DNA of 64,000 nucleotides from Sinomonas sp. ASV486 (GTDB lineage Bacteria > Actinomycetota > Actinomycetes > Actinomycetales > Micrococcaceae). Below are positions 42,893 through 64,000 of this stretch, one piece after another (position 1 is the first letter of the stretch; every line of letters starts with the position of its first letter). The stretch covers positions 186,001-250,000 of the forward strand of contig NZ_JAVFJK010000006.1 of assembly GCF_030908215.1 (NCBI RefSeq). Reading direction: 5' to 3'. The position numbers were made by a program, and so were the translations under genes. Below the pieces are notes generated by a model, which saw only the letters and a list, made by a program, of their open reading frames with translations, did not search any database and had not been told where the DNA came from.

Positions 42893-43249
42893 ATGAGAGC
42901 CAAGGACAGACTCGGTCAGCGCGGGGAACGCCTCGCGGAAGAGTACCTTCGGTCAACGGGCGCGGCCATTCTGGACCGCAACTGGCGTTGTCGCGAGGGA
43001 GAGCTGGACATAGTCGCCGCGGACGCCGGGACGCTTGTGGCCGTCGAGGTCAAGGCGCGCCGCTCGTGGGACTTCGGGCATCCTTTCGAGGCGGTCGACG
43101 CCGCGAAGCTCGGCCGCATCGTGCACCTCCTGAGCGCGTGGGCCGCGGTGCACGGGGTCCACAGCCGGGCCAGGCGCATTGACGTCATCGCCGTGACGGG
43201 TCCGGCCGGGGAACGCTCGGTCATCGAGCACCTCAAGGGCGTGGCCTGA
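42893..43249 (+). CDS. yraN: YraN/UPF0102 family nuclease-fold protein
   Basis: A 118-aa protein with the UPF0102 pattern: GQRGERLAEEYLRSTGAAILDRNWRCREGELDIVAAD, then VAVEVKARRS. The D…EVK residues are those of the restriction-endonuclease-like fold, but activity in this family is uncertain. ATG 42893 gives the usual start (RAKD-LGQRGE); an ATG at 42869 is possible. It overlaps comM by one base (TGATG), and yraN–comM–dprA is a common competence cluster. Confidence 0.9.
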   Translation: MRAKDRLGQRGERLAEEYLRSTGAAILDRNWRCREGELDIVAADAGTLVAVEVKARRSWDFGHPFEAVDAAKLGRIVHLLSAWAAVHGVHSRARRIDVIAVTGPAGERSVIEHLKGVA

Positions 43250-43566
43250 TGGCCGGCATCGGCAGGGCTCTTGGGGTGGCTCTCGTGGGCCTCAACGGCT
43301 ACCTCGTCGAGGTCGAGGCAGACATCGGGCAGACACTGCCCAGCTTCGTGCTGCTCGGACTTCCCGACTCCGCGCTCAGCGAGGCCCGCGAGCGTATCCG
43401 CAGCGCGGCGAAGAACAGCGGGCTCCCGTTGAGCCGGCGAAAGCTCACGGTGAACCTCATTCCGGCGTCGCTGCCGAAGCGCGGCACGGGCTTCGATCTT
43501 GCCAAACCGCAAATTTGGCACCCCTTGCAGCCGTTGATCGCCTCGGCGCATACTGGCGGCAGGTAG
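43249..43566 (+). pseudogene. comM: comM 5' fragment (ComM/YifB, Mg-chelatase-like), cut by element 1
   Basis: ComM is a hexameric helicase that extends branch migration during natural transformation. Residues 1–85 are normal: MAGIGRALGVALVGLNGYLVEVEADIG, LLGLPDSALSEARERIRSA, and LTVNLIPASLPKRGTGFDLA. After Ala85 the sequence turns into element DNA (KPQIWHP…) and stops 20 codons later. The rest of comM resumes at 51431 beyond element 1. The fragment lacks the ATPase domain and should be inactive. Confidence 0.92.
43495..43520. other. attL of element 1
   Basis: The comM codon pair GATCTT runs into GCCAAACCGC. The right junction reads GGTTTGG followed by CCTGGCC. Joining the two element-side halves gives GGTTTGGCCTGGCCAAACC, a perfect 9-1-9 inverted repeat, as expected for a large serine integrase attP; this supports the boundary. 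Confidence 0.8.
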
Positions 43567-43581
43567 GTTGAAGCTTCAACC
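43566..43581. promoter_or_regulatory. 16-bp perfect palindrome GGTTGAAGCTTCAACC in element 1
   Basis: It lies 37 bases before the small plus-strand gene at 43618 and contains the TTGAAGCTTCAA core found upstream of the chromosomal VOC dioxygenase at 35778. It is likely an operator; the regulator is not in the element. Confidence 0.6.
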
Positions 43582-43617
43582 AACCGGAACACCGAGAACA
43601 CCGAGAGGGCGAGAACA

Positions 43618-43857
43618 ATGGCAGCATCGACAGTCCAGGACCTCTTCTACTGGGACTCCAAGACGGGCAAGACCTCGAAGGCGTGGAACGTCCGCCGGGC
43701 AGACACCGTCAAGCGGTTGACCAAGCTCGCTGGGGAGGCGGAGGCCGCCGAATTCGCGGCCATGATCAAGAAGGCGCCGGATCGCCGCGAACCGTGGATG
43801 TCCAAGAGCGGTCATGTGGTTATCTTCTTCACCGAGAGGCAGGACGAGTGGGCCTGA
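43618..43857 (+). CDS. Small protein of element 1, unknown function
   Basis: A 79-aa protein (ASTVQDLFYWDSKTGKTSKAWNVRR … SGHVVIFFTERQDEWA) on the plus strand, opposite to the other element genes. It is mixed charged, without membrane segments or recognised motif. It follows the GGTTGAAGCTTCAACC palindrome and ends before a strong bidirectional terminator, so it has its own transcription unit. Its position at the attL end, away from the replication and capsid genes, is a usual place for satellite cargo. Confidence 0.65.
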   Translation: MAASTVQDLFYWDSKTGKTSKAWNVRRADTVKRLTKLAGEAEAAEFAAMIKKAPDRREPWMSKSGHVVIFFTERQDEWA

Positions 43858-43884
43858 GCCTCTGAACCCTGCCGCTGCGAAAAA

Positions 43885-43906
43885 GGGGCCTCCCGAAGGA
43901 GGCCCC
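43885..43906. terminator. Bidirectional terminator in element 1
   Basis: GGGGCCTCC – CGAA – GGAGGCCCC forms a 9-bp stem with AAAAA before it and ATTTTC after it, so it can stop transcripts from both the plus-strand gene on the left and the minus-strand gene on the right. Confidence 0.88.
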
Positions 43907-43927
43907 ATTTTCATGGAAGCGCGAGGA

Positions 43928-44242
43928 TCAGACATCCTTCGGATCTGTGGCGATGTAGCCGCGCGGCGCGATCGCTTTGATGTCCGGACGCTGCGGCGCT
44001 TCGGTGATCCCCAAGAACGTTAGGGGATCCTTTCCGTCGCGGTGTATCCTCTGCCCTCCGACTGTGAGGGTTACGTCGAAGAACAATGGGGAGATCTCCC
44101 CCCGACGATTTGTCTCGACGCTGAAGCTTTCCAGTTTCCCGACCACGTAGGCGGTATCCGTCAGACCCAATCTGATCAGTTGGCCAATGTAGCCCCCATG
44201 AAGCTCAGCGGCATACACCTTGTGCTCATCTTGCTCGTTCAT
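43928..44242 (-). CDS. Hypothetical protein of element 1
   Basis: A 104-aa protein (MNEQDEHKVYAAELHGGYIGQLIRLG … GYIATDPKDV) with alternating hydrophobic beta-like stretches and no recognised domain. Base composition is less GC-rich than the flanking chromosome, as for the neighbouring gene. It is the last gene before the terminator at 43885 on the minus strand. Probably accessory cargo; function unknown. Confidence 0.6.
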   Translation of the reverse strand: MNEQDEHKVYAAELHGGYIGQLIRLGLTDTAYVVGKLESFSVETNRRGEISPLFFDVTLTVGGQRIHRDGKDPLTFLGITEAPQRPDIKAIAPRGYIATDPKDV

Positions 44243-44284
44243 TAGCTCTCCCCACCCTTCGCTTGAGTGCCTCCGAAGGGAAGG

Positions 44285-44794
44285 CTACAGGACGGAAGAA
44301 CTGCGGCGTTGAGGGTTCCAGCCACGCTTGGCCGAGGACTCGATACCCAACTCTTCTCGCACACCGTCGGCGAAACGTTCGACCGCCGAACTGTACGCCG
44401 AAACCTCAGGTATGCCTCGTGCCACAAGAGGCATCTTCTGCGCTGGAAGGTCAGCCTGCCGCAGTTGCATCAGACTCACGATTACGTCGGCATAGGCCTT
44501 GTTGACCTTGGGCGGTGCGAGGACCTCGACGCCGCTGCCGATCAGTTGGTCGGTCAAGGCCTCTATGCGGTCATCCCGAAGCCCATCGGAGTTCCTGAGG
44601 ATCATTGAGGAAATCGTCTCCATCGCTCCAAGCTGCTTCATGTAGAACTCGTACATAAGCTGACGGAGCCAGATCTTGTGTTCCCGCTTCCCTGATGAGA
44701 TGTGGATCATCCACGCGAAAACACCAGAGATGACCGCGCCACCGATTGCGCCACCGACTGCACTCCCGAGGAATGCGGCCCATACAGGATCCAT
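44285..44794 (-). CDS. Single-pass membrane protein of element 1, unknown function
   Basis: A 169-aa protein with one N-terminal helix rich in Gly/Ala (AAFLGSAVGGAIGGAVISGVFAWMI, residues 5–29) and a cytosolic helical region that ends in a basic tail. No family was recognised. It lies on the minus strand between the capsid gene and the left end, in lower-GC DNA than the chromosome. A small membrane-anchored cargo protein in this position of a satellite could take part in superinfection exclusion or abortive defence, but nothing in the sequence proves it. Confidence 0.6.
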   Translation of the reverse strand: MDPVWAAFLGSAVGGAIGGAVISGVFAWMIHISSGKREHKIWLRQLMYEFYMKQLGAMETISSMILRNSDGLRDDRIEALTDQLIGSGVEVLAPPKVNKAYADVIVSLMQLRQADLPAQKMPLVARGIPEVSAYSSAVERFADGVREELGIESSAKRGWNPQRRSSSVL

Positions 44795-45315
44795 GCCCTC
44801 AACCTAGCCGAGCGTTTACTGATATGCACCAGACATGCCGTAGTTGACTATCGGTCTTGCGATCTCGATCGACCCTTATGGCCATAGCAGGGAAGGGGTC
44901 AAAGACGCCATCAAGACGCACAGCCTTCCCCAGCGTCCTTGCTGCTCGCGCGCGAACGTGCGCGCGTGTATCGCGCGCGTGAGAGCGACGTCTTGGCCGG
45001 TCGGGCGGGCTTTCGGGCCTCAGATCCACTGCAAACGATCCACCGGCGCACAGAGCGCTACCCGGCGAAGCGCTCAGCCCCGATCTGGCCTCGGCTTTCT
45101 TGCCTGCCCCTACCCCTGCCGCGCCTTGGCTGCGGGCGCCCGGTGGCACGTGCATCAGTTGCATCGCGTCGCGGCGCAGAACGGCTCGGCGCCAGAGGGT
45201 GTCCCGGCCGCACGCGCTCCGGGAGCGAAGGCGGAGCGATGCGATCCTCTGACGCCGAGCCGTTTGGAGGGCGACGCGCACGAGGACCACTCCACAGGTG
45301 CGCGCCGCCCCGTCT
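44795..45315. other. Gene-free stretch of element 1, between the capsid gene and the left-end cargo
   Basis: No convincing gene on either strand: the open frames here have Arg/Pro/Ser-rich shadow composition and no ribosome site. It contains an alternating CG-rich tract near 44945–44985 (gcgcgcgaacgtgcgcgcgtgt) able to fold on itself. It probably holds the promoter of the 44285–44794 gene and the capsid-gene terminator. Confidence 0.5.
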
Positions 45316-46842
45316 CTAGGCGATGCCGCTGATCACAGACACCGCTGCGGGCCTTGCAACACCAAGAGTGAGGCGCTCGGTCGCCCGAACCTTCACGAGG
45401 CCCGACTGGAAGTCGGTGCCGCTGGAGTTGGTCATCTCGAGGGTGATGCCCTGTCGGAGGAAAGCAACGCCTGCAAGTGAGGTATTAAGAAGGACGCCGG
45501 TACCCTGAGTGAGCTGGGTCGTGGTGTGGACGGGCACCCCCCAGAGCGAATCAACGGCGACCTCCCCCGGGTTCCCCAGAAGATAGTTTCCGGTGCCGGT
45601 GGCCTTGGTGCGCCTAATGAGCGACCAGTCGCTGGGATTCAGCAGGATCGCGTCGGGCTCCGTGTAGGCGGACCCGTTGCGCAGATCGGCGATGGCCTCC
45701 TCGACAAGATCCAGGTTGTTCTCGCTGCCCTTGGCACGGGTCAGCACTCCAGCTGTCTGGAGAAGACCGCGGATGTTGGGCGCCGTACCATTCCCGTAAA
45801 GGAGTTGGTAGTTTTCCTGGTCAATTATGAGCCGAGTCAGCTCGGTGTTGACATAATCGCGAAATGATGTGAAGTCAGCTGTGATCTCATCTGTCAAGGT
45901 TGTAAAGATGCCGACCTTCTGGGCGGTCAGAATCAGCTGCGTCGTGTTCAGCACGGCCTCGGGCATCGTCTGGCCAGCGCCCACGGCGCCAGCCGTGCCG
46001 GTCGTGTTGACGCTCGGAACCGTGAAGGCCGCGCCAGCGCTGCCGGTGTCCGTGTAGGACGTGGTGCCGATGGGCTGAGCGTTGACCTTCACGCTCTCGT
46101 TGCCTGCCGTGTTGCCCCGGTACAGGTTCCAGCCGGTGACGCCGGTCGGGAAGGCGCCCACGCTCAGGGCCTGCTGCTGGTTCGCGGTCAGGGTTGCCGT
46201 AACCTCGGTGCTGCCCGTGGTCTCGCCGGTCGGCGTGACGTACGTGGCCTTCCAGAAATACGAGCCGGCGCCGAACGTGCCGCCAGCCGAGGCCGAGCCC
46301 AGAGCCAGGGTCGGCGCGGCAATCTGGTTCGAGGCCACGCTCGTGGAGCTGTGCTGCACGAACTCGATGCTTGGAGCGGACATCGCCGACGAGGGGAGCA
46401 GGTCGAGGATGCGCGTGGGCTCGTGGATCTTCGGAACGAGGCCGCCGAATTCGGGCGGCAGCTGCCCGTCCGTGGCAGTGCTCGACGTCGTGTCCTTGAG
46501 GCCGAGCTCGGCCCGGAAGTTCGAGCCCGACTTGATGCGCGCGTAGGCCTCGCGCGTGACCTCGGTGGGCATCTTGAGGCTCGGCACCGCCTTGCCACGG
46601 CGCGGGGCGTCGGGGTCGAACGTGCCGTCTTCCTCGGACAGCGCGCTGGCGCCGACCGCGAGGCGCCTTGCCTGCGCCTTGACCTGCTCGTCCGAGTAGC
46701 CGTTGAGGTCTCGCATCTTCTGGCCGATGACCGTGAGGCGCTGGACCTTCTGCGTGTTGGATAGCGTGAGATCGTCGCGGATGAGCTGCGCCTCCGCGTT
46801 CAGCTGCATCAGCCTGATCTGGTTCTGGTTGCCGGTAGGCAT
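45316..46842 (-). CDS. HK97-fold major capsid protein of element 1
   Basis: A 508-aa capsid subunit. ATG 46842 follows AAGGGGACA; an open frame further upstream lies in a GGC-repeat region and is unlikely coding. Residues 1–120 are helical (a delta-domain-like scaffold). PEFGGLVPKIHEPTRILDLLPSSAM opens the HK97 fold. Residues about 175–290 hold an inserted Gly/Thr-rich beta region (FWKATYVTPTGETTGSTEV … GWNLYRGN). The fold resumes with TDEITADFTSFRDYVNTELTRLI, LLYGNGTAPNIRGLL, ILLNPSDWSLIRRTK and LWGVPVHTTTQL. It is the only clear structural gene in the element, so particles would need a helper phage or would be unusually simple. Confidence 0.9.
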   Translation of the reverse strand: MPTGNQNQIRLMQLNAEAQLIRDDLTLSNTQKVQRLTVIGQKMRDLNGYSDEQVKAQARRLAVGASALSEEDGTFDPDAPRRGKAVPSLKMPTEVTREAYARIKSGSNFRAELGLKDTTSSTATDGQLPPEFGGLVPKIHEPTRILDLLPSSAMSAPSIEFVQHSSTSVASNQIAAPTLALGSASAGGTFGAGSYFWKATYVTPTGETTGSTEVTATLTANQQQALSVGAFPTGVTGWNLYRGNTAGNESVKVNAQPIGTTSYTDTGSAGAAFTVPSVNTTGTAGAVGAGQTMPEAVLNTTQLILTAQKVGIFTTLTDEITADFTSFRDYVNTELTRLIIDQENYQLLYGNGTAPNIRGLLQTAGVLTRAKGSENNLDLVEEAIADLRNGSAYTEPDAILLNPSDWSLIRRTKATGTGNYLLGNPGEVAVDSLWGVPVHTTTQLTQGTGVLLNTSLAGVAFLRQGITLEMTNSSGTDFQSGLVKVRATERLTLGVARPAAVSVISGIA

Positions 46843-46920
46843 TGGAATGTCCCCTTGAAGGTGAATGTGGGCGATGGCCGGAAGGTCCGATGGACCCTCG
46901 ATTGAGCTCGACCAGCTACA

Positions 46921-47009
46921 TCCAGCGGCGGCGGTGGCACTCGGCGGGCGGCGGCGGCGGCATTGCTGCGGCGGCGGCGGCACCGCTCTGGCGGCGGCGG
47001 CGGGGGGAC
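46921..47009. repeat. (GGC)n-rich tract upstream of the capsid gene
   Basis: Four blocks of repeated GGC triplets, broken by short spacers (cactcg, attgct, accgct), lie between the capsid gene and the small upstream gene. It is not in a recognisable coding frame. It could be slipped-strand repeat DNA within the capsid mRNA leader. Confidence 0.6.
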
Positions 47010-47067
47010 GCGAGCTAAAGCTCTTGTTCCTTGATATTCAATTGGTAGTGCACTATCACTTTAGGTT

Positions 47068-47244
47068 CTAGTCGCGGAGTGGGCAATCGGGCGCGTGCGC
47101 TGCGGTGCCGCACACGACGCACGGGGGGATGTCGAAGAGCAGGTTCTCCTCGGCCTCCTGTACCGCGCGGGCCTCTCGTTCGATCTGCTTGGCGTACTGG
47201 GCGATCTCTTCGTCGGAAGGCTGTGGGGCGTCTTGTGGCGTCAT
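47068..47244 (-). CDS. 58-aa small protein with a zinc-knuckle-like C-terminus, element 1
   Basis: From ATG 47244 the frame gives TPQDAPQPSDEEIAQYAKQIEREARAVQEAEENLLFDIPPCVVCGTAAHAPDCPLRD. The CVVC-…-H-…-C pattern resembles a small zinc knuckle. It overlaps the upstream gene by four bases, which supports translation. Function unknown; it is the last small gene before the capsid gene. Confidence 0.6.
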   Translation of the reverse strand: MTPQDAPQPSDEEIAQYAKQIEREARAVQEAEENLLFDIPPCVVCGTAAHAPDCPLRD

Positions 47245-47513
47245 TTCGGGCTCCTGTGGGTACTTGTGCCGGGTTGATCGGGCGAGACCGCCACGGCGGC
47301 ATCTGGAAGGGATGGGCGATCAATCAGACGGGCGCGGGCCTTGCCGTACGTCTCACCGGGCTGGATGGGCTGCTCCCCGAGGTCGGAGGCGAGGCTCCTG
47401 AGAGACCACACCAAGAAGGCGTGCTGCATCGGGGGATCGTCGTGGAGCACGCGCCCCAGCTGCTCGCGGGCCAGGAATCGCCGGATCAGCTGGGCGCGCA
47501 CGGCGCGGGTCAC
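47241..47513 (-). CDS. 90-aa protein of element 1, unknown function
   Basis: GTG 47513 overlaps the preceding stop (GTGA) and the protein ends in the same overlap style with the next gene. It begins TRAVRAQLIRRFLAREQLGRVLHDD, a basic helical start, and ends in a Pro/Ser-rich tail. A larger open frame exists upstream but is out of phase with the coupled gene. It could be a small nucleic-acid-binding or terminase-like subunit; no firm family. Confidence 0.55.
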   Translation of the reverse strand: MTRAVRAQLIRRFLAREQLGRVLHDDPPMQHAFLVWSLRSLASDLGEQPIQPGETYGKARARLIDRPSLPDAAVAVSPDQPGTSTHRSPK

Positions 47514-47659
47514 CGGTGCTTCTTCCGGGCCGCCGCGCGGCGTGCAGCACGGTTGCACGGCTCGCCCTCGGGCGGCGGTGCCTTGGGCGACGGAGCACCA
47601 TGATGATTGAGGAGGCCCTTCGGCTTCGGGAGGTTCTTTCGGCGATCCTTCTCGGTCAT
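47510..47659 (-). CDS. 49-aa basic protein of element 1
   Basis: From ATG 47659 the frame reads TEKDRRKNLPKPKGLLNHHG … CNRAARRAAARKKHR, very basic at both ends. It is coupled to the next gene by a GTGA overlap. Such short basic proteins are frequent in satellites and phages; DNA binding is only an inference. Confidence 0.55.
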   Translation of the reverse strand: MTEKDRRKNLPKPKGLLNHHGAPSPKAPPPEGEPCNRAARRAAARKKHR

Positions 47660-47662
47660 GTG

Positions 47663-47887
47663 TCAATCTCCTAGGTCGGTCTCGACGGTGATCACGAGGC
47701 GGTACGAACCGCCATGGGCGCAATGAGCCAGACGGTGGCCGAGGTCGCCGTCGAGTTCGGGGCCGCCGCTGCCGTGGAGGTGCTTCCGGCGGCAGTAGGG
47801 ACAGAGCACGGTGAGCAGCCACGTGACCGGCCACTTCCTCTGGAACACGACGGACAGCACCGGGGCGACGGGGTCGGTGTCATGCAT
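47663..47887 (-). CDS. 74-aa protein with zinc-ribbon-like motif, element 1
   Basis: The likely start is ATG 47887 (HDTDPVAPVLSVVFQRKWPVTWLLTVLCPYCRRKHLHG), 16 codons inside a longer open frame. CPYCRRKHLH followed by HRLAHCAHGG looks like a small zinc-binding site. It lies four bases upstream of the 49-aa gene. Function unknown; it belongs to the coupled run between the replication ATPase and the capsid gene. Confidence 0.6.
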   Translation of the reverse strand: MHDTDPVAPVLSVVFQRKWPVTWLLTVLCPYCRRKHLHGSGGPELDGDLGHRLAHCAHGGSYRLVITVETDLGD

Positions 47888-48005
47888 GGGTGATGGGTTC
47901 CCTTCGTGGTGGATTGAACTGTGGCCTTTGAACAACTGCGGCGGGCTTTAGCAAGCCCGCCCGCCGCAGTAGTTTGGAACTGCGGCGCGCCGTACTGCGC
48001 CATAG

Positions 48006-49553
48006 TTAGCCGGTGTTGCAGAACAGGTCTGTTCCGCCTCCCTTGCCCTTGTGCGGCTTGGCCACAAGGACCCCCGAAACTATGGCGGCTTCTATGGCGG
48101 CGCGAACGCTGCCGTCGGCGCCGACCACGTCCCGAACTATGGCGGTCCGGCTGACGCCCGGATTCGCCTTCACGTATTCCTCCACAGCGGCCTGAATCTC
48201 GCTCTCGCGGGCGGCCTCGGCGGCCTGCCGTGGGCCGCCCATGCCGGACAGCGAGAGCGTCAGCGTGTCCTGGTCGAAGTAGAGGGCATCCTCGGATATC
48301 TCGCTCTCGCGGTCGCTGCGGATTGTGGCGCGGAAGTACCGCGTGGGCCTTGCCTTTTCCTTGCGGAGCCAGACGAGCGAGTCGGCCCAGTCCTCAAGTG
48401 CCGTAGAGCCGCGCACATGGTCCCCCTCCCAGCCCGCATGGGCGGTGAGCACCATCTCCGTCGCGCCGACCTCCTGCCGGGCGAACCGGTCCAGATCGTT
48501 CAGCCACGCCGATACTTCGCCGGCGTCGTTCTGCGACTTCCCGGTGTAGGCGCGCCCGAACGGGTCCGCTATCAGAACCTCGACTCCGTGGAGGGAAAGC
48601 TGCTCGGCCAGCCGCGCCCGCTCGCCTGGATGGTCCAGCGGACTGGTGCGCCCGCGGAAGTTGGCGATGTAGAGCCGGTCGGGCGGGATGCCGTGCCGCT
48701 GCGCCCACTGCGCGATCTGGTGTGGGCTGACCTCGTAGTTCAGGAACCCGACGGTGCCCTGCACGGGCCGCACGAGGAACGAGCCCAGGAACGGCTCACC
48801 CGTGATGACCGAGCGGGCGAGGTTCAGGGCGAACACCGTCTTGCCGGTCTTGCGCATGGCGACGGCGAGCATGTTGGCCTCGGCCCCGAGCAGACCCTCG
48901 ATGCGCGGCGGCGGCGCGGGCGGTCGGGCCAGAATGTCGGCCAGCATGCCACCATCGAGGGGCGCCATGACCCCGCGCTGCTCAGCGGCAAACCTGCCCT
49001 TGGCAGCCTCGACTACTCGGAGGCGGCGCAGCTGCTGTTCCACCTCGCGCTCGAATGACGAGCCCTCCTGCTCCTGCTGCTGCTCGTCGTGCGGCAAGGG
49101 CACGGCACCGAAATCCTCGTCCGCGGTGCTGGGCCTGCCGCTGATGTCCGCCCATCTGATGCCGAAGATCTCAAGGATCTGCTCTCGCGGCGTCGTGCAG
49201 GACCAGCAGTGGACGAGGACCTTGCCGTCGGGAAGCTCCCGCACCGACAGCGATGGATTGCGGTCGCCATGAGCGTGAGCCGGCGACGGGCAGGAAATGA
49301 GCCAATTCCGGCTCAGCTCGCCGTCCTTGAATTCCGAGGCGCTTTCTACGACCTGACGTTCGAGCCGTTCCGCCGCTGTGAGCAGGCGGTCAATGCCCCG
49401 GAGCTGCAATTCCTCGGGAGACGGAATAGGGCAGCGGTCGCGAATGTCTCCGAAACTCACCCACTGCCCATCATGGGTGAAGTACGGTAGCCTTGCATTG
49501 TCTCGGTCGGCCCCGGAGGTTTCGCCCCCTTCGGGGTCTTCCTCTGTGCTCAC
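48006..49553 (-). CDS. Primase-zinc/RecA-like replication ATPase of element 1
   Basis: A 515-aa protein with two parts. Residues about 80–130 carry a primase-like zinc motif, CPSPAHAHGDRNPSLSVREL followed by VHCWSC, as in phage CHC2-type primases. Residues about 215–430 form a RecA-fold ATPase of the AAA_25/RepA kind: Walker A MRKTGKTVFAL, Walker B EVLIADPFG, then a sensor-like TEMVLTAHAG. A winged-helix-like C-terminus ends the protein. It probably acts as primase-helicase for replication of the excised element. It overlaps the small upstream gene by four bases. Confidence 0.85.
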   Translation of the reverse strand: MSTEEDPEGGETSGADRDNARLPYFTHDGQWVSFGDIRDRCPIPSPEELQLRGIDRLLTAAERLERQVVESASEFKDGELSRNWLISCPSPAHAHGDRNPSLSVRELPDGKVLVHCWSCTTPREQILEIFGIRWADISGRPSTADEDFGAVPLPHDEQQQEQEGSSFEREVEQQLRRLRVVEAAKGRFAAEQRGVMAPLDGGMLADILARPPAPPPRIEGLLGAEANMLAVAMRKTGKTVFALNLARSVITGEPFLGSFLVRPVQGTVGFLNYEVSPHQIAQWAQRHGIPPDRLYIANFRGRTSPLDHPGERARLAEQLSLHGVEVLIADPFGRAYTGKSQNDAGEVSAWLNDLDRFARQEVGATEMVLTAHAGWEGDHVRGSTALEDWADSLVWLRKEKARPTRYFRATIRSDRESEISEDALYFDQDTLTLSLSGMGGPRQAAEAARESEIQAAVEEYVKANPGVSRTAIVRDVVGADGSVRAAIEAAIVSGVLVAKPHKGKGGGTDLFCNTG

Positions 49554-49771: not shown

Positions 49772-49961
49772 TGCAGAACACCTTTGCGGCGAGCCCCGTG
49801 GGCGACGGCCCTATCGGTTTTCCGGTGTTCTGCGGAGAATGGGGAAGCGGCCTCCCCGCTGAGGCCCGATACGAATTACTGTAGCTGGCACAATGCGTCG
49901 TGACAAGCGGACTGCGCAACCGCGCTATTTCCAATCAATCAATTGCTGCGCCGCCGCGCTA

Positions 49962-51416: not shown

Positions 51417-51420
51417 TGTA

Positions 51421-54671: not shown

Positions 54672-54675
54672 TTAT

Positions 54676-56640: not shown

Positions 56641-56643
56641 CCC

Positions 56644-56820: not shown

Positions 56821-56881
56821 GTCCGACCCCTTATGCAGGGTTCGGGTTGAGGTCAGAGATCCGGAGCAATCCGGGGGGGCG

Positions 56882-57823: not shown

Positions 57824-58075
57824 GCTCTACATTCCCCCTAAGTGAGTGCGATGAGGCCCACCATAGCCCAACCCATCGCCCGCCCAGCCGCCCACCCGCC
57901 GCAGTGCTCGAATGCCGCGCCCAGGCGTGCGCGCGCGTGTGCGAACGCGAATCATTCTCACCCTGTGGCGTCGTGTTGGGGTACTCCCGAATGCAACGCG
58001 GTATTCCAACAAAGCTATGCGGTGCAGTAGGGCCAATTACTGGATTGCGCGACACGTGAGGCGTAGACTTAAGAC

Positions 58076-58669
58076 ATGATGCAACAGGCGAAGGGTCAGA
58101 CCGTCGCGTACATCCGCGTCAGCACCCTCGACCAGAACCCCGTACGCCAGTTCGAGGCCGTCGGCGAAGTGGACCGCGTGTTCGAGGACCGTATCTCCGG
58201 CGGCAGCCGTGACGGCCGTACAGCCCTCCAGGAGATGCTCGGCTACATCCGCGCCGACGACCTCGTGCGGGTCGCTTCAATGGACCGGCTGGCCCGCTCA
58301 TTGATCGACCTCAAGGCGATCGTCGGCGAGATCGTGGCCAAGGGTGCCGCAGTGCAGTTCGTCAAGGAGCGCCTCACGTTCGAGCCCGGCGCCGAGGACA
58401 AGTTCGCTGTCTTCCAGCTGCACGTGCTGGGCGCAGTGGCAGAGCTTGAGCGCTCACTGATCAAGGAGCGACAGGCAGACGGCATCAAGGCAGCCAAGGC
58501 ACGCGGCGTGTACAAGGGCCGAGGTCGAGCACTCAAGCCAGCACAGCTCACAGAAGCCCGCCAGCTCATCGCTGACGACCTCCCCAAGGCCGAGGTGGCC
58601 AGGAGGCTCGGCGTGGACCGTTCGACCCTGTACCGGGCGCTGAGCAGGGCCGAGAGGGAGCCCCTGTGA
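58076..58669 (+). CDS. Resolvase/invertase-type serine recombinase of element 2
   Basis: A 197-aa small serine recombinase: catalytic TVAYIRVSTLDQNPVRQFEAV, then DRISGGSRDGRTALQEML and SMDRLARSLIDLKAIV. The C-terminal HTH reads PKAEVARRLGVDRSTLYRAL. It is the third serine recombinase in this region and is too small to be a phage integrase. Possible roles are dimer resolution, DNA inversion, or a remnant of a transposon. No inverted-repeat ends were found beside it. It is divergent from the minus-strand cargo gene. Confidence 0.9.
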   Translation: MMQQAKGQTVAYIRVSTLDQNPVRQFEAVGEVDRVFEDRISGGSRDGRTALQEMLGYIRADDLVRVASMDRLARSLIDLKAIVGEIVAKGAAVQFVKERLTFEPGAEDKFAVFQLHVLGAVAELERSLIKERQADGIKAAKARGVYKGRGRALKPAQLTEARQLIADDLPKAEVARRLGVDRSTLYRALSRAEREPL

Positions 58670-58865
58670 GGGGCCACCCCCAGGGTGGGGGTACCTGCCC
58701 GGCCACAGAACCCCCACCGGCACGGAGCCCCCACGGGCCAGCCAGGGCCCCAGGGGTGGGGGGTGGAATCTATCCGGAGTGGTGCCGCCAACCCGGACTA
58801 CCCCCTCGACGTGTACGCCACGTGCGCGCGTAGCCCGAGGTTTTCATCGAACAACTAGGAGTTTT

Positions 58866-59423
58866 GTGAGCGAAGAGGTTGAGAAGCGTCCACCGTGGAG
58901 TCGTGCACCGTTCGCGAAGGGCCACACGAAGTCTGTGCAGCACGGCGCCCGCAGTGAGCGCATGTTGGCGCCGTTGGCCGCGGAGATCGAGGCGGAGGCG
59001 CGGGCGAGCAGTGACTGGCCGGCCCATCTCGACGATGCGAGGTACTCCGCCGAGGTCGCGAGCTGGTGCTGGAGCGAAGCGGTGTGCGCGAGGCTCAGGG
59101 AGTTCTTGGCCGGGTCGGACCCGTTGGAGTGGCTCCAGGAGACCCAGGACACGGACGAGAGCGTCCAGGTGTCCGAGGGTGGCAGCAGTCGCCGTCGCGC
59201 GCGGACGGTGAGGCAGCAGAGCGCGCTTGAGCAGCTGGGCAGGTGGGAGCGCACAGCGGGGCAGCGGCGTGCGGCGCTGGGCTTGACGCCGGTGAGCGCC
59301 GCGAAGCTTAGCCGCGACTTGATGCTGGCGAGGAAGTCCGCCTCCGGCATGGACATGGCGAGGCTGATAGAGCAGGCGCAGGCTGAGGATCTTGGGGAGG
59401 TGGAGTCCGGTGACGCCGAGTGA
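58866..59423 (+). CDS. Terminase small subunit-like protein of element 2
   Basis: A 185-aa protein. GTG 58866 follows AGGAG. The start SEEVEKRPPWSRAPFAKGHTKSVQHGARSERMLAPLAAEI and end WERTAGQRRAALGLTPVSAAKLSRDL match the general pattern of actinophage terminase small subunits, which recognise packaging sites. The GC-rich, hairpin-forming spacer upstream (58670–58860, with ACCCCC-AGGGT-GGGGGT) is where such a protein could bind. No large terminase follows, so packaging would depend on a helper. The next gene overlaps its end. Confidence 0.72.
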   Translation: MSEEVEKRPPWSRAPFAKGHTKSVQHGARSERMLAPLAAEIEAEARASSDWPAHLDDARYSAEVASWCWSEAVCARLREFLAGSDPLEWLQETQDTDESVQVSEGGSSRRRARTVRQQSALEQLGRWERTAGQRRAALGLTPVSAAKLSRDLMLARKSASGMDMARLIEQAQAEDLGEVESGDAE

Positions 59424-59646
59424 GGCCCTCCAGCTCGTGCTGGACCTCGCGGCGGCGTTCGACCGTGACGACCTGCCGTCGGTGAGGCTCCTGCTGGCGG
59501 CCCGGTCGCGCGATGAGCTGGCGTTCGTGCTGCTGTCCGCGGTCCAGGTCGCCATGAAGGTTTCCCTGGACCTGGCCGAGGAGCCGGTGGGTCCGATGGG
59601 CCCGATGCTGGCCGCCGTCGAGGTCTTGCGGGAGGCCATGGAATAG
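59410..59646 (+). CDS. 78-aa protein of element 2
   Basis: GTG 59410 lies inside the terminase-like gene's end, giving a 14-base overlap. The frame reads TPSEALQLVLDLAAAFDRDDLPSVRLLLAARSRDELAFVLLSAVQVAMKVSLDLAEE, helical and hydrophobic without a membrane segment. No function recognised; it is a tight partner of the terminase-like gene. Confidence 0.6.
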   Translation: MTPSEALQLVLDLAAAFDRDDLPSVRLLLAARSRDELAFVLLSAVQVAMKVSLDLAEEPVGPMGPMLAAVEVLREAME

Positions 59647-59702
59647 GGAAATTCACGCGCACGCCTGGCAGGAGCCCTTTTTTGCGGCTGGGCGACCCAG
59701 AA

Positions 59703-59909
59703 TCAGGCTTCTCCCGGCTTTTCAGGGCAGGGGTGGTGTGATTGCCTTAATAGGGGGGTCGAATCGCTCTGCGGGGCTCCTGTGGCTTTTCTCCTCGCGA
59801 GGGTGCTGACCCGATCAGCGAGGCCCATGGCGAATTCGTCCAGCTCGTCCTCGGACATCTCGTCGATGTCCTTGTCCGGCCGGAGGAAGAACCGCTCGTT
59901 CTCAGCCAT
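59703..59909 (-). CDS. 68-aa minus-strand protein of element 2
   Basis: AENERFFLRPDKDIDEMSEDELDEFAMGLADRVSTLARRKATG… is acidic at the N-terminus and basic later. It is the second minus-strand gene in the visible part. It might be a small regulator. The support is modest: good length and composition, no close ribosome site. Confidence 0.45.
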   Translation of the reverse strand: MAENERFFLRPDKDIDEMSEDELDEFAMGLADRVSTLARRKATGAPQSDSTPLLRQSHHPCPEKPGEA

Positions 59910-60053
59910 GGTGGCTGTCCCTTATCTTCGATAGCACCCTATTAGCATAATTGAGTTTCCTCCCATTCGCTCATACAATTGAGACCGGAAGCAATTCCCC
60001 CGAACCGACCCCCCTCTTGGAGTTATGTGGCCCCTTCCAAACTGAAGATCACC

Positions 60054-60081
60054 AAGCCGGAGACAAGCGTCTCCGGCTTTT
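60054..60081 (+). terminator. Rho-independent terminator upstream of the late-looking genes of element 2
   Basis: AAGCCGGAGAC – AAGC – GTCTCCGGCTT gives a perfect 11-bp stem followed by TT. It stands directly before the ribosome site of the gene at 60101, so it may act as an attenuator for the protease-containing run or end a short upstream transcript. Confidence 0.8.
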
Positions 60082-60100
60082 GCGCGCCTGGGAGGCCGTG

Positions 60101-60250
60101 ATGCAGGTTGACCTCGACCCCAAGACCTACGAGCGGATCAAGATGATCGCCCGTCGCGAGGACCGCCTCATCAAGGGCGTCGTGCGGCGCGCCATCGAGG
60201 CGGCTTACCCCGAGGACGCAGAGGAGGCCCGCGATGACGGCGATCGCTGA
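60101..60250 (+). CDS. 49-aa ribbon-helix-helix-like protein of element 2
   Basis: ATG 60101 follows GGGAGG. The sequence QVDLDPKTYERIKMIARREDRLIKGVVRRAIEAAY fits a CopG/Arc-type ribbon-helix-helix DNA-binding domain. A longer open frame upstream crosses the terminator and is not used. It overlaps the next gene. It is likely a local repressor. Confidence 0.7.
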   Translation: MQVDLDPKTYERIKMIARREDRLIKGVVRRAIEAAYPEDAEEARDDGDR

Positions 60251-61079
60251 ACCCGAACTCCTGGAGCCGACGGAGGCGCCCGGGGCCGAACTGAGGCCGT
60301 ACTACCGCCTCACCGTCACCGACGAACAAGTTCTTGCGTATGCCCGCCTGGCGGACGCCGCGGAACGCGCCCGGGAGGCGCTGGCCCGGCTGAAGAACCG
60401 GCGCGACGAAGTGGACCGGCAGCTCGCGGACCTCGCGGCCGAGGTCCAGACCCGTGCCGCCCAGAGGGCCGCGGCTGAGGCCGACGCAGACGCAGCCGCC
60501 GACCGCGGCGACGTCGATGCGGTCGCGGCGGCGACCAGTTACCTCGGCGCACTCGACCGTGTCGAGAAGGCCCGGGCGCTCCGCACCGAGGCTGTGCGCG
60601 CCGATGCGGCCAAGGTTGCCGAGCAGATCGCGACGGCCGCCCAAGAGGCCCAGGAGGCCGCCGATGCACTCGCGGCGGCGCCGATCGGCGTTCCCCGGAG
60701 TGATGTCGATGCGGTCGCCAGGGGCCAGATCGTGGCACTCGTCGAGGCGTGGCCGGGCGATGACCTTGTGCACTTCGTCGAGACGGTGCTCCCGCGGATT
60801 CCTGACTTGGTCGCGGCGTACGCACAGGAGGACCCCGAGGGCTTCATGGCATGCGTCCCACGTGGCGGCCCCGACACACCCGAACCGGCCCCGCACGAGA
60901 TCACGCCCGAGGAGGCCGCCCAGGTCCTCGCCGAGCACCGGCGAGAACAGAACGCGGCTTCCTGGAATGCCGCGGCTCAGGCTCGCGACGCGGCCCAAGG
61001 GCTGGCCGTGAGCGTGCCCACACCCGCCCAGGAGACAGCGGCGACCGAGTGGGCGTGGATGACCGGAGGCACCCAGTGA
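60234..61079 (+). CDS. Coiled-coil protein of element 2 (scaffold candidate)
   Basis: A 281-aa protein. Residues about 35–150 are a long Ala/Glu/Arg-rich coiled coil (ADAAERAREALARLKNRRDEVDRQLADLAAEVQTRAAQRAAAEADADAAAD). The C-terminal part is acidic and contains EAWPGDDLVHFVETVLPRIPDLV. It lies just before the prohead protease, a normal position for a scaffolding or portal-associated protein, but no portal motif is present. Coupled at both ends. Confidence 0.6.
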   Translation: MTAIAEPELLEPTEAPGAELRPYYRLTVTDEQVLAYARLADAAERAREALARLKNRRDEVDRQLADLAAEVQTRAAQRAAAEADADAAADRGDVDAVAAATSYLGALDRVEKARALRTEAVRADAAKVAEQIATAAQEAQEAADALAAAPIGVPRSDVDAVARGQIVALVEAWPGDDLVHFVETVLPRIPDLVAAYAQEDPEGFMACVPRGGPDTPEPAPHEITPEEAAQVLAEHRREQNAASWNAAAQARDAAQGLAVSVPTPAQETAATEWAWMTGGTQ

Positions 61080-61753
61080 TACCGGAAGACACCATCACTT
61101 TCGACGTCCCGATCACTAAGGCGATCGCGGCCGACGCGGCGCCAGACTCCACCGTCTACGTCGAAGGCCTGTGCACGGATGATGATCTCGATCTCGACTC
61201 CCAGATCATCGACCGCGACTTCGCCATCAAGGGCCTGGGCACGTGGTTCGCGGACTGGGGGAACGTCCGGGTCATGCACTCCCCGAACCTCGCGCCCGCT
61301 GGCAAGGCGGTGCAGATGGAGGTCCGGCCGGAGGGCATCTGGGTCCGGACCCACGTCGTCGAGCCCACCGCGGTGCAGCTCGTCAAAGCGGGCGTGTACT
61401 CCGCGTACTCCGTGGGTGTCTCCCAGCCAAGGGTGGTCCACGACCGGATCGCGAAGAATGGCCGCGTCGTGGACGGCATCTTCTCGGAGATCTCCCTCGT
61501 GGACTTCCCCGCGAACCCGCGCTCACGGTTCACGCTCGCGAAGCGGGCCCACAGCGGCCTCATCGAGGTGGTCGAGAAGATCGTCGGCGCACCCGAGACC
61601 CTCGCGGACCGCGTCCGGCGACTCCAGGACCGCGAGCTTGAGGAACTGGTCCGCCAGGCACGGCACCCGAACTCGGACATCGCCCGCCCCGCCCTCGGAA
61701 TCCTCATCAACAAGGTCGGGCCGATCACGGCCGCCGACCTCGTCAACGGCTAA
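61076..61753 (+). CDS. HK97-type prohead protease of element 2
   Basis: A 225-aa serine protease of family U35 that matures capsids. GTG 61076 overlaps the previous stop. VYVEGLCTDDDLDLDSQIIDRDF opens the fold, the catalytic His is in VRVMHSPNLAPAGKA, and the Ser is in YSAYSVGVSQP. FSEISLVDFPANPRSRF matches the C-terminal family signature. A longer frame upstream (from 60851) is a shadow. A capsid gene would be expected nearby but is not present before the window ends. Confidence 0.88.
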   Translation: MIPEDTITFDVPITKAIAADAAPDSTVYVEGLCTDDDLDLDSQIIDRDFAIKGLGTWFADWGNVRVMHSPNLAPAGKAVQMEVRPEGIWVRTHVVEPTAVQLVKAGVYSAYSVGVSQPRVVHDRIAKNGRVVDGIFSEISLVDFPANPRSRFTLAKRAHSGLIEVVEKIVGAPETLADRVRRLQDRELEELVRQARHPNSDIARPALGILINKVGPITAADLVNG

Positions 61754-61770
61754 GAGAAAGGACACACGTC

Positions 61771-62064
61771 ATGGACAACACCCCAACCGCCCCCGCCCCG
61801 CCTCAGCCGGACCCCGACGCGGCTCGCATGAGCCCGTCGTCCACCGACTGGCAGCACGGCGACGTCATGGCCCGCCTCGGCGGCGTCCACATCGTCCCGG
61901 GCATCGCCCCGACCGGCGAGGTGACCAAGGGACCCGATGGTGACAGGGCCCTCGCCTCGAACCTGTCCGGTGTGCCGCTCGCGACCGCAGTGTTCGCCAG
62001 CGCCCGGAGCCGTCCGACCCCGGTGGACCCCGAAGCACTCCCACGGCTGGGAGGTGCCGAATGA
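61771..62064 (+). CDS. 97-aa protein of element 2
   Basis: A Pro/Ala-rich protein (DNTPTAPAPPQPDPDAARMSPSSTDW … PRLGGAE) with one central ordered-looking stretch (GDVMARLGGVHIVPGIAPTGEV). It follows the protease by 17 bases, after GAAAGG. Function unknown; it may be a minor capsid-associated protein. Confidence 0.55.
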   Translation: MDNTPTAPAPPQPDPDAARMSPSSTDWQHGDVMARLGGVHIVPGIAPTGEVTKGPDGDRALASNLSGVPLATAVFASARSRPTPVDPEALPRLGGAE

Positions 62065-62234
62065 GCGGCGTCCAGCACCGTGACGGCGCCTCCGGGCAGA
62101 TCGTCAGCGGACCCCCGCACGACTCGCCGACCGAGGTAACGCATCCGGACAACTCCAGCTCGGAGGCGTTCAGACGCTCGTTCCAGCGCGCGCCGCTCAC
62201 CGAGGGCCGGGCGGCCCCGGCCCCGTCCGACTGA
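62061..62234 (+). CDS. 57-aa protein of element 2
   Basis: ATG 62061 overlaps the previous stop. The frame reads SGVQHRDGASGQIVSGPPHDSPTEVTHPDNSSSEAFRRSFQRAPLTEGRAAPAPSD, Ser/Pro-rich and probably disordered. Function unknown; supported by coupling only. The 190-base spacer that follows holds no gene. Confidence 0.5.
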   Translation: MSGVQHRDGASGQIVSGPPHDSPTEVTHPDNSSSEAFRRSFQRAPLTEGRAAPAPSD

Positions 62235-62427
62235 CCACCACAGCTTCCGGCGCCGGGGCTCCTGACCCGGCCCCGGGGACCGCACCAATGCCATGAGGCG
62301 GCCCGCCACGACGAGGACAGCGGCACCTAGACCGGGCGAATGGCGAGGCGGCCCGGCATGTGACGGCCTCGTTGGTCTCCGCGGGGCTTGTTACTCCTAG
62401 GTGGTGAGATGGGGCAGGATTGCTAGC

Positions 62428-63927
62428 ATGCACGACGACCTCCTTGCCCATGCCGAGATCAATCGGGTGGCAGCCCTAGCCGGGCTCGATTCGAAGAGCC
62501 AAGACAGGCTCGGACAGTTCTTCACTCCGGCAGCGGCAGCAGTCCTCATCGCGAGCATGCCGAGACTGCCCCAGGAAGGTCGAATTTCTGTTCTTGATCC
62601 CGGAGCTGGATCCGGGATGTTGTCTGCGGCCATCGTTTCGCGAGTGCTCGCCGAGCGACCGAACGTATCCGTTCATGTGGTTGCGGTTGAGTGTGACGAG
62701 GCTGTGGTACCGCGGTTGGCCGACACGCTTGAAGCGTGCGTGGTGGCGGGTGGGGGTCGAGTAACGTTCGATATTGTGACGGGCGACTTCATCTCTGTCG
62801 CTACGGGCTTCATCGCTGACCCGAGGCTCACAGGCTTCGATCTGGTCATCCAGAATCCTCCGTACGCCAAACTCGCGGCATCGTCGCCGGTGAGGACCGC
62901 AGTTCGCGAGTTCGGGGCCGACGCCCCCAACCTGTACGCGGCCTTCCTGGCCGTCGCGGCGCAGACTCTCGCGCCGGGGGGCCAATTGGTGGCGATCACG
63001 CCGCGCTCGTTCTGCAATGGGCCGTACTTTGGAGCGTTCCGCTCCTACCTCCTCCATGAACTCGCCCTCGACCGTGTGCATGTGTTCGAGTCCCGGTCGA
63101 CCGTCTTCGCCGACACCGGGGTATTGCAGGAGAACGTCATCATTTCGGCAACGAAGCACGGCAGACGAGAGACAGTGACACTTTCGATTAGTAGGGGCCA
63201 CGAGGACGACGCGTCCCACCGCCAAGTGCCATACGCCGACGTGCTACGCCCCGACGACCTCAACCAATTCATTCGGATCGCCACGGATGACGCCGACACT
63301 GCCATCGCCGAGGAAATGATGGGCCTGCCGTGTACGCTCGCTTCGCTCGGCGTAACCGTGTCCACAGGTCGTGTCGTCGACTTCCGGTCGCGCGAGTGCC
63401 TGCGCTACGAAGGCATCGAAGGGGGGCTTCCCCTGATCTACCCCGGCAATGTTCGCGAGGGCCGCGTGCTCTGGCCCCGGGAGATTCAGAAGGCGCAGTG
63501 GTTCATACCCCTCACCGAGGGGGACGAGAAGATGCTCGTCCCCGAGGGCTGGTACTGCGTCGTTAAGAGGTTCTCGGCCAAGGAAGAGCGGCGACGTATA
63601 GTGGCCGCGGTATGGTCTCCTGAGACCACCCCTGGCCCGGTCGCCTTCGAGAACCACGTCAACGTACTTCATGTGAAGGGTGGGGGCCTCGACCGCCACT
63701 TGGCCTACGGTCTCTCGCTATGGCTGAACTCTTCGGTCGTGGACAAGTTCTTCAGGACCTTCTCGGGCCACACACAGGTCAATGCGACTGATCTCCGGAC
63801 GATGCGCTTCCCGGACACCGCCGCACTCGTGCGGCTCGGCACGGGAGCACCGGAAGCTCTTCCTGGCCAAGACGCGATCGACGCACTCGTTGCCCGCCTG
63901 CTCTACTCGGCCGAGGTAGCCGCATGA
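62428..63927 (+). CDS. N6-adenine DNA methyltransferase of BsuBI/PstI type
   Basis: A 499-aa gamma-class adenine methyltransferase. Motif X/I region RLGQFFTPAAAAVLIASM and SVLDPGAGSGMLSAAIV bind SAM; NPPYAKLAA is the catalytic motif IV (NPPY). It resembles Eco57I-like and BsuBI/PstI methylases, and the following gene is the matching nuclease start. ATG 62428 has AGGA eight bases upstream; GTG 62401 lacks a ribosome site. The pair is cargo in element 2 and would protect the host against other phages while addicting it to the element. Confidence 0.9.
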   Translation: MHDDLLAHAEINRVAALAGLDSKSQDRLGQFFTPAAAAVLIASMPRLPQEGRISVLDPGAGSGMLSAAIVSRVLAERPNVSVHVVAVECDEAVVPRLADTLEACVVAGGGRVTFDIVTGDFISVATGFIADPRLTGFDLVIQNPPYAKLAASSPVRTAVREFGADAPNLYAAFLAVAAQTLAPGGQLVAITPRSFCNGPYFGAFRSYLLHELALDRVHVFESRSTVFADTGVLQENVIISATKHGRRETVTLSISRGHEDDASHRQVPYADVLRPDDLNQFIRIATDDADTAIAEEMMGLPCTLASLGVTVSTGRVVDFRSRECLRYEGIEGGLPLIYPGNVREGRVLWPREIQKAQWFIPLTEGDEKMLVPEGWYCVVKRFSAKEERRRIVAAVWSPETTPGPVAFENHVNVLHVKGGGLDRHLAYGLSLWLNSSVVDKFFRTFSGHTQVNATDLRTMRFPDTAALVRLGTGAPEALPGQDAIDALVARLLYSAEVAA

Positions 63928-64000
63928 ACGCGAACGACATTGTGGCGGAGGCACGCATCCTCCTGGGCATGCTCGGTATGGACGCTGAGCGCACCAATGA
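63924..64000 (+). CDS. BsuBI/PstI-family restriction endonuclease, N-terminus only
   Basis: ATG 63924 overlaps the methylase stop (ATGA). The 25 codons visible read NANDIVAEARILLGMLGMDAERTN, which fits the start of BsuBI/PstI endonucleases (helix then NERS-type segment). The rest is outside the window. The order methylase then nuclease and the overlap are as expected for this R-M type; the assignment from so short a piece is tentative. Confidence 0.6.
   Translation, partial: MNANDIVAEARILLGMLGMDAERTN

What the first reader, a model, noticed from the sequence alone, without database searches (positions are those of the whole stretch)
43249..64000. comM is broken twice, by two different serine-integrase elements at two different sites
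Seen: the comM frame runs to Ala85, stops, resumes at 51431, and ends again at about 52640, each break beside its own large serine integrase (484 aa and 465 aa, clearly different). Known: comM is a hotspot for AbaR islands in Acinetobacter, and comK carries serine-integrase prophage in Listeria. Inference: comM in this lineage offers at least two attB sites, so the competence gene may be a shared landing pad for satellites, and excision could act as a switch for transformation. Two independent hits within 9 kb in one gene is unusual.
Basis: partly seen in the sequence, partly recalled or inferred. Interest (0 to 1): 0.85.

Follow-up and report, generated by a model that had tools for sequence, protein, structure and literature searches.

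The report
Competence gene split by two elements
A bacterial gene thought to help cells recombine DNA from outside, comM, has been cut at two places by two different virus-like elements that each insert at their own exact spot; the gene is already known as a favourite landing place for such elements, and what stands out here is two of its landing spots filled at once in one copy.

Summary
Confirmed. The only comM of this Micrococcaceae genome is in three pieces. Element 1 (7,933 bp, core CT at 43498 and 51431) splits it inside codon 84. Element 2 (14,600 bp, core CT at 52634 and, beyond the window, 67234) cuts off the last 30 residues. Each has its own large serine integrase (32% identical). 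A genome of the same species has site 1 empty, equal to the window's joined flanks in 45 of 46 bases, and a different element at site 2: integrase-made insertions, not an assembly error. Relatives of integrase 1 occupy site 1 in six other genomes seen, relatives of integrase 2 occupy site 2 in two; other integrases break comM near Walker A and Walker B. The landing-pad reading is right but known in kind: Durrant et al. 2022 report that 12.4% of predicted site-specific serine integrases hit magnesium-chelatase homologues, and comM insertions are described in Acinetobacter, Wolbachia and others. Excision as a transformation switch has no support here. The additions are two sites filled in one gene, exact att sites, and a multi-site map. 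The two window sites are only slightly more conserved than comM on average, so why they were chosen stays open.

The parts
43249..43499 (+). comM, 5' piece (codons 1-83 and the first two bases of codon 84), cut inside the ChlI domain
   Evidence: PF13541 1-64/121, E 3.7e-18; 83 of 83 codons identical to the same-species genome G255
43498..43499 (.). site 1 left junction: core dinucleotide CT of attL1
   Evidence: left flank follows the same-species empty site up to and including CT, then departs
43500..51430 (-). element 1 (7,933 bp from core to core): capsid, AAA/primase-like protein and integrase, all three on the - strand
45316..46848 (-). major capsid protein of element 1
   Evidence: PF05065 E 1.3e-26 (longer reading of the frame); phrog_10 major head protein E 8.4e-36
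48006..49553 (-). AAA_25 / primase-like protein of element 1
   Evidence: PF13481 E 2.2e-26; phrog_906 E 2.3e-11
49962..51416 (-). large serine integrase 1 (484 aa); start codon about 15 bp from the attR1 core
   Evidence: PF00239 and PF07508 over cut-off, PF13408 under it; phrog_95 integrase E 4.1e-78
51431..51432 (.). site 1 right junction: core CT of attR1
   Evidence: from CT onward follows the same-species empty site
51431..52635 (+). comM, middle piece (rest of ChlI, whole Mg_chelatase AAA+ domain, most of Mg_chelatase_C)
   Evidence: PF13541 63-121, PF01078 E 9.2e-87, PF13335 1-73/94
52634..52635 (.). site 2 left junction: core CT of attL2; the comM frame reads on as LAKTLE and stops at 52654
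52636..64000 (+). element 2, part inside the window; it continues to the attR2 core at 67234-67235 (14,600 bp from core to core)
52660..54057 (+). large serine integrase 2 (465 aa), start about 25 bp from the attL2 core
   Evidence: PF00239 and PF07508 over cut-off, PF13408 under it; 73% and 75% identical to integrases at the same site in G010 and G255
54214..54555 (+). small helix-turn-helix protein, weak excisionase-like match
   Evidence: HTH_17 E 0.0013, under the curated cut-off; phrog_66 E 0.0019
54894..56132 (+). replication-initiator-like protein of element 2
   Evidence: phrog_1032 E 4.1e-8; no Pfam match at 0.001
60851..61753 (+). protein of element 2 with a weak head-maturation-protease match
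   Evidence: phrog_21715 (unknown function) E 1.1e-16, phrog_80 E 6.3e-5; no Pfam match at 0.001
62401..63927 (+). type II DNA methyltransferase; a PstI/BsuBI-type endonuclease follows at about 64026-64868 outside the window
   Evidence: PADLOC MTase_II E 1.4e-165 and REase_II E 5.1e-126; PF06616 E 1e-58 for the endonuclease

Best explanation
Two large serine integrases, each with its own specificity, inserted two different phage-like elements into two attB sites of the single comM gene. Each crossover is at a 2-bp CT core and leaves attL and attR without loss of host bases (shown for site 1 by the empty site of the same species; for site 2 inferred from reading frame and same-genus relatives). 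Site 1 lies in the codons for Phe-Asp-Leu-Ala in the ChlI domain, site 2 in the codons for Leu-Ala-Trp near the C-terminus. comM can then no longer give a full protein (inference), so incoming DNA should be integrated less well if the strain is transformable (inference from comM work in other bacteria). The insertions look recent on the scale of strain divergence, because the comM pieces show no decay (inference).
For: Anatomy. Same-species genome G255 has comM codons 1-493 in one frame; the window's site-1 flanks joined at CT equal its empty site in 45 of 46 bases. G255 carries another element, about 9.6 kb with an integrase 75% identical to integrase 2, at site 2, with the comM tail beyond it. 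Chromosome flanks of the two genomes are 99.4-99.6% identical, the comM middle piece 98.7%. Half-site symmetry of the inferred attP: 14 of 22 (element 1, arms offset by one base) and 12 of 22 (element 2); shuffles P = 0.0003 and 0.0097, best of three offsets. Integrase-1 relatives sit at site 1 in A. rhombi, A. wenxiniae, a Pseudarthrobacter, a Microbacterium, a Terrabacter and G078; integrase-2 relatives at site 2 in G255 and G010. In a tree of 130 serine recombinases the six labelled site-1 rows fall on one side of a branch (SH-aLRT 99) and the three site-2 rows likewise (100), counted against labelled rows only. No decay: 484 codons compared with G255, 15 synonymous and 1 non-synonymous differences, no stop (one search counted 16, one of them an element base). 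AbaR insertion inactivates comM and lowers transformation in A. baumannii (PMC7508600, passages).
Against: No recombination was observed. The symmetry of the inferred attP of element 1 is centred half a base off the CT core. G010's left site-2 junction reads GT, not CT, at the matching codon, and its right junction was not found in the 21 kb read beyond it. Relatives of these integrases are mostly not at comM: with E up to 1e-60 in 295 family genomes, comM lies in the 1.5-kb flanks of 4 of 16 places for integrase 1 and 3 of 24 for integrase 2, the window's own included. The smallest supported set around the six site-1 rows holds nine further rows with no comM in the DNA held. Host transformability is untested.
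Confidence: 0.92

Rival explanations
1. Anti-competence targeting (a rival on why comM is the target): the elements gain by breaking comM, since recombination with imported DNA can cure integrated elements.
For: Croucher et al. argue this, list comM insertions, and report two distinct sites of comFA hit by integrases 34.1% identical (PMC4774983, passages). Durrant et al. report strong enrichment of DNA competence genes among targets. ComEC and DprA matches are present in this genome. Micrococcus luteus, of the same family (recalled), is naturally transformable (abstracts in the listing). Two of the three occupied sites of the species compared lie where comM loses only 30 residues, yet G010 with such an insertion also has a frame break.
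Against: Wolbachia phage WO uses the same gene (PMC9203015, passages) in a host that to my knowledge is not competent (recalled). Site 2 removes only the last 30 residues, and whether that inactivates the protein is unknown. Nothing here measures benefit.
Confidence: 0.4
2. Safe landing (the other answer to why comM): comM is used because it is near-universal, single-copy and dispensable; loss of function is a by-product, and a second insertion into a dead gene costs nothing.
For: A comM match was found in 148 of 149 family genomes and 141 of 148 phylum genomes. Two of five mapped break sites are among the most conserved stretches (11-codon windows in 29 intact relatives: Walker B LDE at the 98th and the stretch before it at the 89th percentile of DNA conservation); over all five the mean is higher than for random positions, P = 0.019.
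Against: The sites filled in the window are ordinary: site 1 at the 64th and site 2 at the 66th percentile, Walker A at the 63rd; the sites were chosen after the fact, so the P value is generous. comM is constrained within the species (15:1). One double occupancy is too few to test a cost-free second hit.
Confidence: 0.45
3. Regulated switch: one or both elements excise on cue and rebuild comM, as the first reader suggests by analogy with comK prophage.
For: Both integrases have full domain sets and both att pairs look intact; element 2 has a weak excisionase-like protein.
Against: Both elements would have to leave for the whole gene to return; the same-species genome holds a different element at site 2, which speaks for turnover and not for a stable partnership; no directionality factor was identified.
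Confidence: 0.05
4. Assembly artefact or naturally split comM.
For: The genome is a 19-contig draft, and no reads were available.
Against: All three pieces and dprA lie on one 288,544-bp contig; junctions have the register expected of an integrase crossover and agree with the same-species single-contig genome; 12 of 13 same-genus relatives have an unbroken comM.
Confidence: 0.02

Closest known systems
Large-serine-recombinase elements in magnesium-chelatase/ATP-dependent-protease genes (Durrant et al. 2022, PMC10083194)
   Same: What I take to be the same gene family, and the same kind of integrase; targeted by 12.4% of predicted site-specific integrases, with distantly related recombinases on the same gene cluster.
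   Different: The part read (section 6) does not describe two sites filled in one gene copy or a map of sites along the protein; its supplements were not read.
Prophage sr1WO in the Wolbachia magnesium-chelatase gene (PMC9203015, passages)
   Same: Serine-recombinase prophage splitting the same gene; attB inferred from an uninterrupted relative.
   Different: The passages describe one prophage per gene copy, in an insect endosymbiont.
AbaR islands in Acinetobacter comM (PMC7508600, passages)
   Same: Mobile island disrupting comM, with measured loss of transformation.
   Different: Built of transposons Tn6019/Tn6018, not inserted by a serine integrase.
Mobile elements in comM, comFA, comYC and comK (Croucher et al. 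2016, PMC4774983, passages)
   Same: Competence genes as repeated targets, including two sites in one gene (comFA) by divergent integrases.
   Different: There the two comFA sites were hit in different genera; here two sites are filled in one gene of one genome.

Membership tests
Large serine integrases | Resolvase catalytic domain + Recombinase + zinc-ribbon domains | tested here: met
   PF00239 and PF07508 over the curated cut-off for both; PF13408 at E about 4e-4, under its cut-off
Large serine integrases | 2-bp core shared by attL, attR and the empty site | tested here: met
   CT at both ends of both elements; empty site 1 seen in G255; for site 2 the empty site is inferred from frame and same-genus relatives
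Large serine integrases | Integrase gene beside one attachment site, attP with dyad symmetry | tested here: met
   about 15 and 25 bp from the cores; 14 of 22 (arms offset by one base) and 12 of 22 symmetric positions, P 0.0003 and 0.0097
Large serine integrases | Catalyses attB x attP recombination | not testable with these tools
   needs an assay
Known comM/Mg-chelatase-targeted elements | Insertion inside the comM coding sequence beside a site-specific integrase, with intact copies in relatives | tested here: met
AbaR-type islands | Transposition genes and a short target-site duplication (recalled) | tested here: not met
   serine integrases adjoin the junctions; joining the site-1 flanks at CT gives the empty site with no duplication beyond the core. 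Transposition genes were not searched for separately.
Capsid-carrying phage satellites (cfPICI-like, criteria recalled) | Integrase, replication gene and capsid gene in a small element without tail genes | tested here: inconclusive
   element 1 has all three in 7.9 kb and no portal, terminase or tail match among the 10 frames scanned; element 2 has only a weak head-protease match among 10 frames scanned
Capsid-carrying phage satellites (cfPICI-like, criteria recalled) | Induced and packaged with the help of another phage | not testable with these tools
   needs induction experiments
Programmed gene-interrupting elements (comK prophage, skin type) | Regulated excision that restores the gene | not testable with these tools
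   no directionality factor identified; weak HTH match only

The most novel reading that the evidence does not exclude
comM is a multi-berth dock: at least five separate target sites along its length (FDLA in the ChlI domain, the Walker A region, just before Walker B, Walker B itself, and the C-terminal LAW codons), each used by its own integrase lineages, tyrosine as well as serine type; the first insertion makes later ones cost-free, so the gene turns over quickly: at least three insertions in two strains of one species about 99.4% identical.
Probability: 0.5. Interest if true: 0.6.

Novelty: new member of a known kind. Interest (0 to 1): 0.45.

Why it matters
It gives exact core positions and inferred attB/attP pairs for two actinobacterial integrases on one host gene, so two insertion systems could be tested side by side. 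It is also a natural case for asking whether elements aim at comM to suppress transformation or use it because it is a safe, near-universal place to land.

Tried and rejected
Direct-repeat search over element 1 with short seeds listed 20 of at least 60 low-identity families and did not show the att sites; they came from comparison with the empty site. Complete phages with these integrases: 243 and 684 phage records match, all under 60% identity; the highest among the ten rows listed per search is 34.7% and 38.8%. IMG/VR: 15 loci for integrase 2 and 25 for integrase 1, one of them 70% identical to integrase 2 (L169), not examined for att sites. Cargo: 24 reading frames of the two elements against the window and loci L038-L215; one element-2 frame matched the G255 element (57% over 67 aa), none matched the G010 element, and six others matched other loci at 27-49%.

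The idea that the insertion sites lie on conserved codons was tested late and holds only in part: the two Walker B sites stand out, the window's own two sites do not. My first odds for the safe-landing reading (0.5) were lowered to 0.45, and those for anti-competence raised from 0.35 to 0.4, for that reason. The first codon count (16 synonymous) took in one element base and was redone.

Broken comM candidates dropped from the counts: G127 and G135 break at contig ends; G197 and G148 are adjacent pieces that read as frame breaks and were not fetched; G448 has a break with no serine integrase found; G086 and G035 and G346, G438, G450, G359, G362 were not followed up; G006 and G154 hold an extra partial copy besides a whole comM. 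L118 has a weak comM match (28% over 138 aa) that I did not count. Literature on two elements in one comM: searches; no listed title or abstract start told of such a case, but most hits were not opened, and supplements could not be read.
Full report
What is there. The window lies in a 288,544-bp contig of a 4.28-Mb, 19-contig draft genome. The genome has one comM. It is in three pieces: 43249-43499, 51431-52635, and a 30-residue tail at about 67235-67332, beyond the window and overlapping the start of dprA. Between the first two lies element 1 (7,933 bp), between the last two element 2 (14,600 bp).

Site 1. The left flank reads ...GGCTTCGATCT and the right flank CTGGCCATCGC.... Genome G255, marked as the same species, has the site empty, and the joined flanks equal it in 45 of 46 bases. 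The left junction departs from the empty site right after CT and the right junction joins it at CT, so the core is CT, inside codon 84. Integrase 1 starts about 15 bp from the core.

Site 2. The left junction ends the comM frame in LAKTLE; the native codons go on as LAWSVADLAG on the far side of the element. The core in frame is again CT. G255 has another element at the same site, about 9.6 kb, with an integrase 75% identical and a capsid gene; of 15 element-2 frames besides the integrase only one matched it (57% over 67 aa). G010, of the same genus, has a 73% identical integrase directly after its comM residue 495; its comM also has a frame break near residue 370, its left junction reads GT in place of CT, and its right junction was not found in the 21 kb read beyond.

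How common. Of the 13 same-genus relatives, 12 have comM aligned in one stretch to residue 518-523 of 523 (L009-L020); G010 is the other. In the family survey (149 genomes, 148 with a match) I count as broken at site 1 the window, G057, G152, G049 and G201, and at Walker B G198 and G067: at least 7 of 149. G201 shows only a right junction on a contig that ends about 0.5 kb on, and G049 only a left one, with no serine integrase found in the roughly 12 kb of element side read. G040 has no match. In the phylum survey (148 genomes, 141 with a match) insertions near Walker B were checked in G361 (tyrosine-type integrase, PF00589 E 1.3e-9; about 21.8 kb) and G372 (serine integrase), and G444 has a serine integrase at a one-sided break before Walker A. 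Listings of these searches were cut and contig-end cases were not all followed, so these are lower bounds.

The same from the integrase side. Of 16 places related to integrase 1 and 24 related to integrase 2 in 295 family genomes (E up to 1e-60), comM lies in the 1.5-kb flanks of 4 and 3, the window's own included. Of the 80 named loci related to integrase 1, 7 have a clear comM piece in the DNA held: L089, L090, L091, L093, L098 at site 1, L117 and L149 near Walker B. So comM is one target among others for these families.

Site map. Site-1 junctions were printed for nine genomes, the window included (G152, G057, G078, L089, L093, L098, G201, G049; 13 junction sequences); all show CT at the same codon. 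One-sided cases prove little, since the host codon itself begins with CT; both sides were read in four (window, G152, G057, G078). Integrase-1 relatives were seen beside six of the other eight. Breaks at the Walker B LDE codons: G361, G067, G198, L117 (Williamsia sterculiae). Slightly upstream: G372 and L149 (a Chloroflexota MAG). Walker A region: G104 (recombinase seen by tblastn only, 24-27%), G444, and one end in G067, which may be a second multiply broken comM but spans contigs. The motif names are recalled.

Are the sites conserved? In 29 intact relatives, 11-codon windows at the five sites have DNA-conservation percentiles of 64 (site 1), 63 (Walker A), 89 (before Walker B), 98 (Walker B) and 66 (site 2); the mean beats random positions with P = 0.019, with sites picked after the fact. 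Conservation thus fits the Walker B sites and says little about the two sites of the window.

Integrase lineages. In a tree of 130 recombinases (135 kept, five dropped; quick method, SH-aLRT support), the six site-1 rows are on one side of a branch (99) and the three site-2 rows likewise (100), counted against labelled rows only. The two rows from the LDE site (L087, L117) share a set of four (99); the two from just upstream (L211, L149) lie elsewhere. The smallest supported set with all site-1 rows also holds nine rows with no comM in the DNA held, so targets have changed or other targets exist. G104 and G198 were too distant to enter, and G078 was found later (44% identical to integrase 1).

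Selection and age. Between the window and G255, 484 comM codons show 15 synonymous and 1 non-synonymous differences and no stop. The flanks are 99.4-99.6% identical, the comM middle piece 98.7%, which I do not explain. The gene was under constraint, and the pieces have not decayed since the insertions. Two different elements at site 2 in strains this close, plus element 1 in one of them, imply at least three insertions in comM in a recent period (inference; replacement of one element by another is a form of this).

Function. ComM is described as a hexameric, transformation-specific helicase of Gram-negative bacteria (PMC11612176, abstract), and its disruption by AbaR lowers transformation in A. 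baumannii (PMC7508600, passages). Transfer to this actinobacterium is inference. ComEC and DprA family matches are present, but E. coli also rings for both, so they do not show competence.

What is known. Magnesium-chelatase/ATP-dependent-protease homologues, which I take to be the comM/YifB family, are targeted by 12.4% of predicted site-specific large serine recombinases, with enrichment of competence genes among targets (PMC10083194, section 6). comM insertions in several Gram-negative species and two sites in comFA are described in PMC4774983 (passages), and sr1WO insertions in the Wolbachia gene in PMC9203015 (passages). The landing-pad idea is established. I found no account of two sites filled in one comM in the searches listed under Tried and rejected.

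Elements. Element 1 carries a capsid protein, a primase/AAA-like protein and the integrase. Element 2 carries a replication-initiator-like protein, a small resolvase, a weak head-protease match and a PstI/BsuBI-type restriction-modification pair. They look like small phage satellites or reduced prophages; helper dependence is untested.

Verdict. The kind is known; the double filling, the exact att sites and the multi-site map are the additions. The excision switch is unsupported.

Noticed in passing
L084:2331-3341 (G006) and L221:807-1742 (G154): An extra partial comM copy that ends at the Walker B codons, in genomes that also hold a whole comM (in G006 about 16 kb away, 99.5% identical over 1,011 bp); perhaps left by an element that carried comM DNA away.
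   Followed up: partly
L209:1660-2978 (G361): A tyrosine-type integrase directly after a comM break at the same Walker B codons that serine integrases use; the insertion is about 21.8 kb.
   Followed up: partly
L086 and L087 (G067): comM broken at Walker A on one contig and at Walker B, beside a serine integrase, on another: a possible second multiply broken comM in another genus.
   Followed up: partly
window 62401-63927 and L006:26-868: Element 2 carries a type II restriction-modification pair of the PstI/BsuBI kind.
   Followed up: partly
L006:2929-3339 and L077:10516-10713: A small protein at the right end of both site-2 elements (57% identical over 67 aa), the only frame besides the integrase found shared between them.
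   Followed up: no
window 43618-43857; L050:2966-3181 and L051:3159-3386: A 79-aa frame of element 1 has relatives (49% and 42%) beside other serine recombinases, not at comM, in G255 and G003.
   Followed up: no
window 56882-57823: A 313-aa protein with a weak match to a candidate defence family (PDC-M14B) and a 30% relative inside the G104 comM insertion (L085:11976-12776).
   Followed up: no
L053 (G000:C18:171040-172338): A further large serine recombinase in the same genome, 37% identical to integrase 1, with no comM in its 1.5-kb flanks.
   Followed up: no
window 51431-52635 against G255: The comM middle piece is less alike between the two strains (98.7%) than the chromosome flanks (99.4-99.6%), almost all by synonymous changes.
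   Followed up: no
L079:4239-4261 (G010): A comM with a site-2 insertion also has a frame break near residue 370, a possible sign of decay.
   Followed up: no
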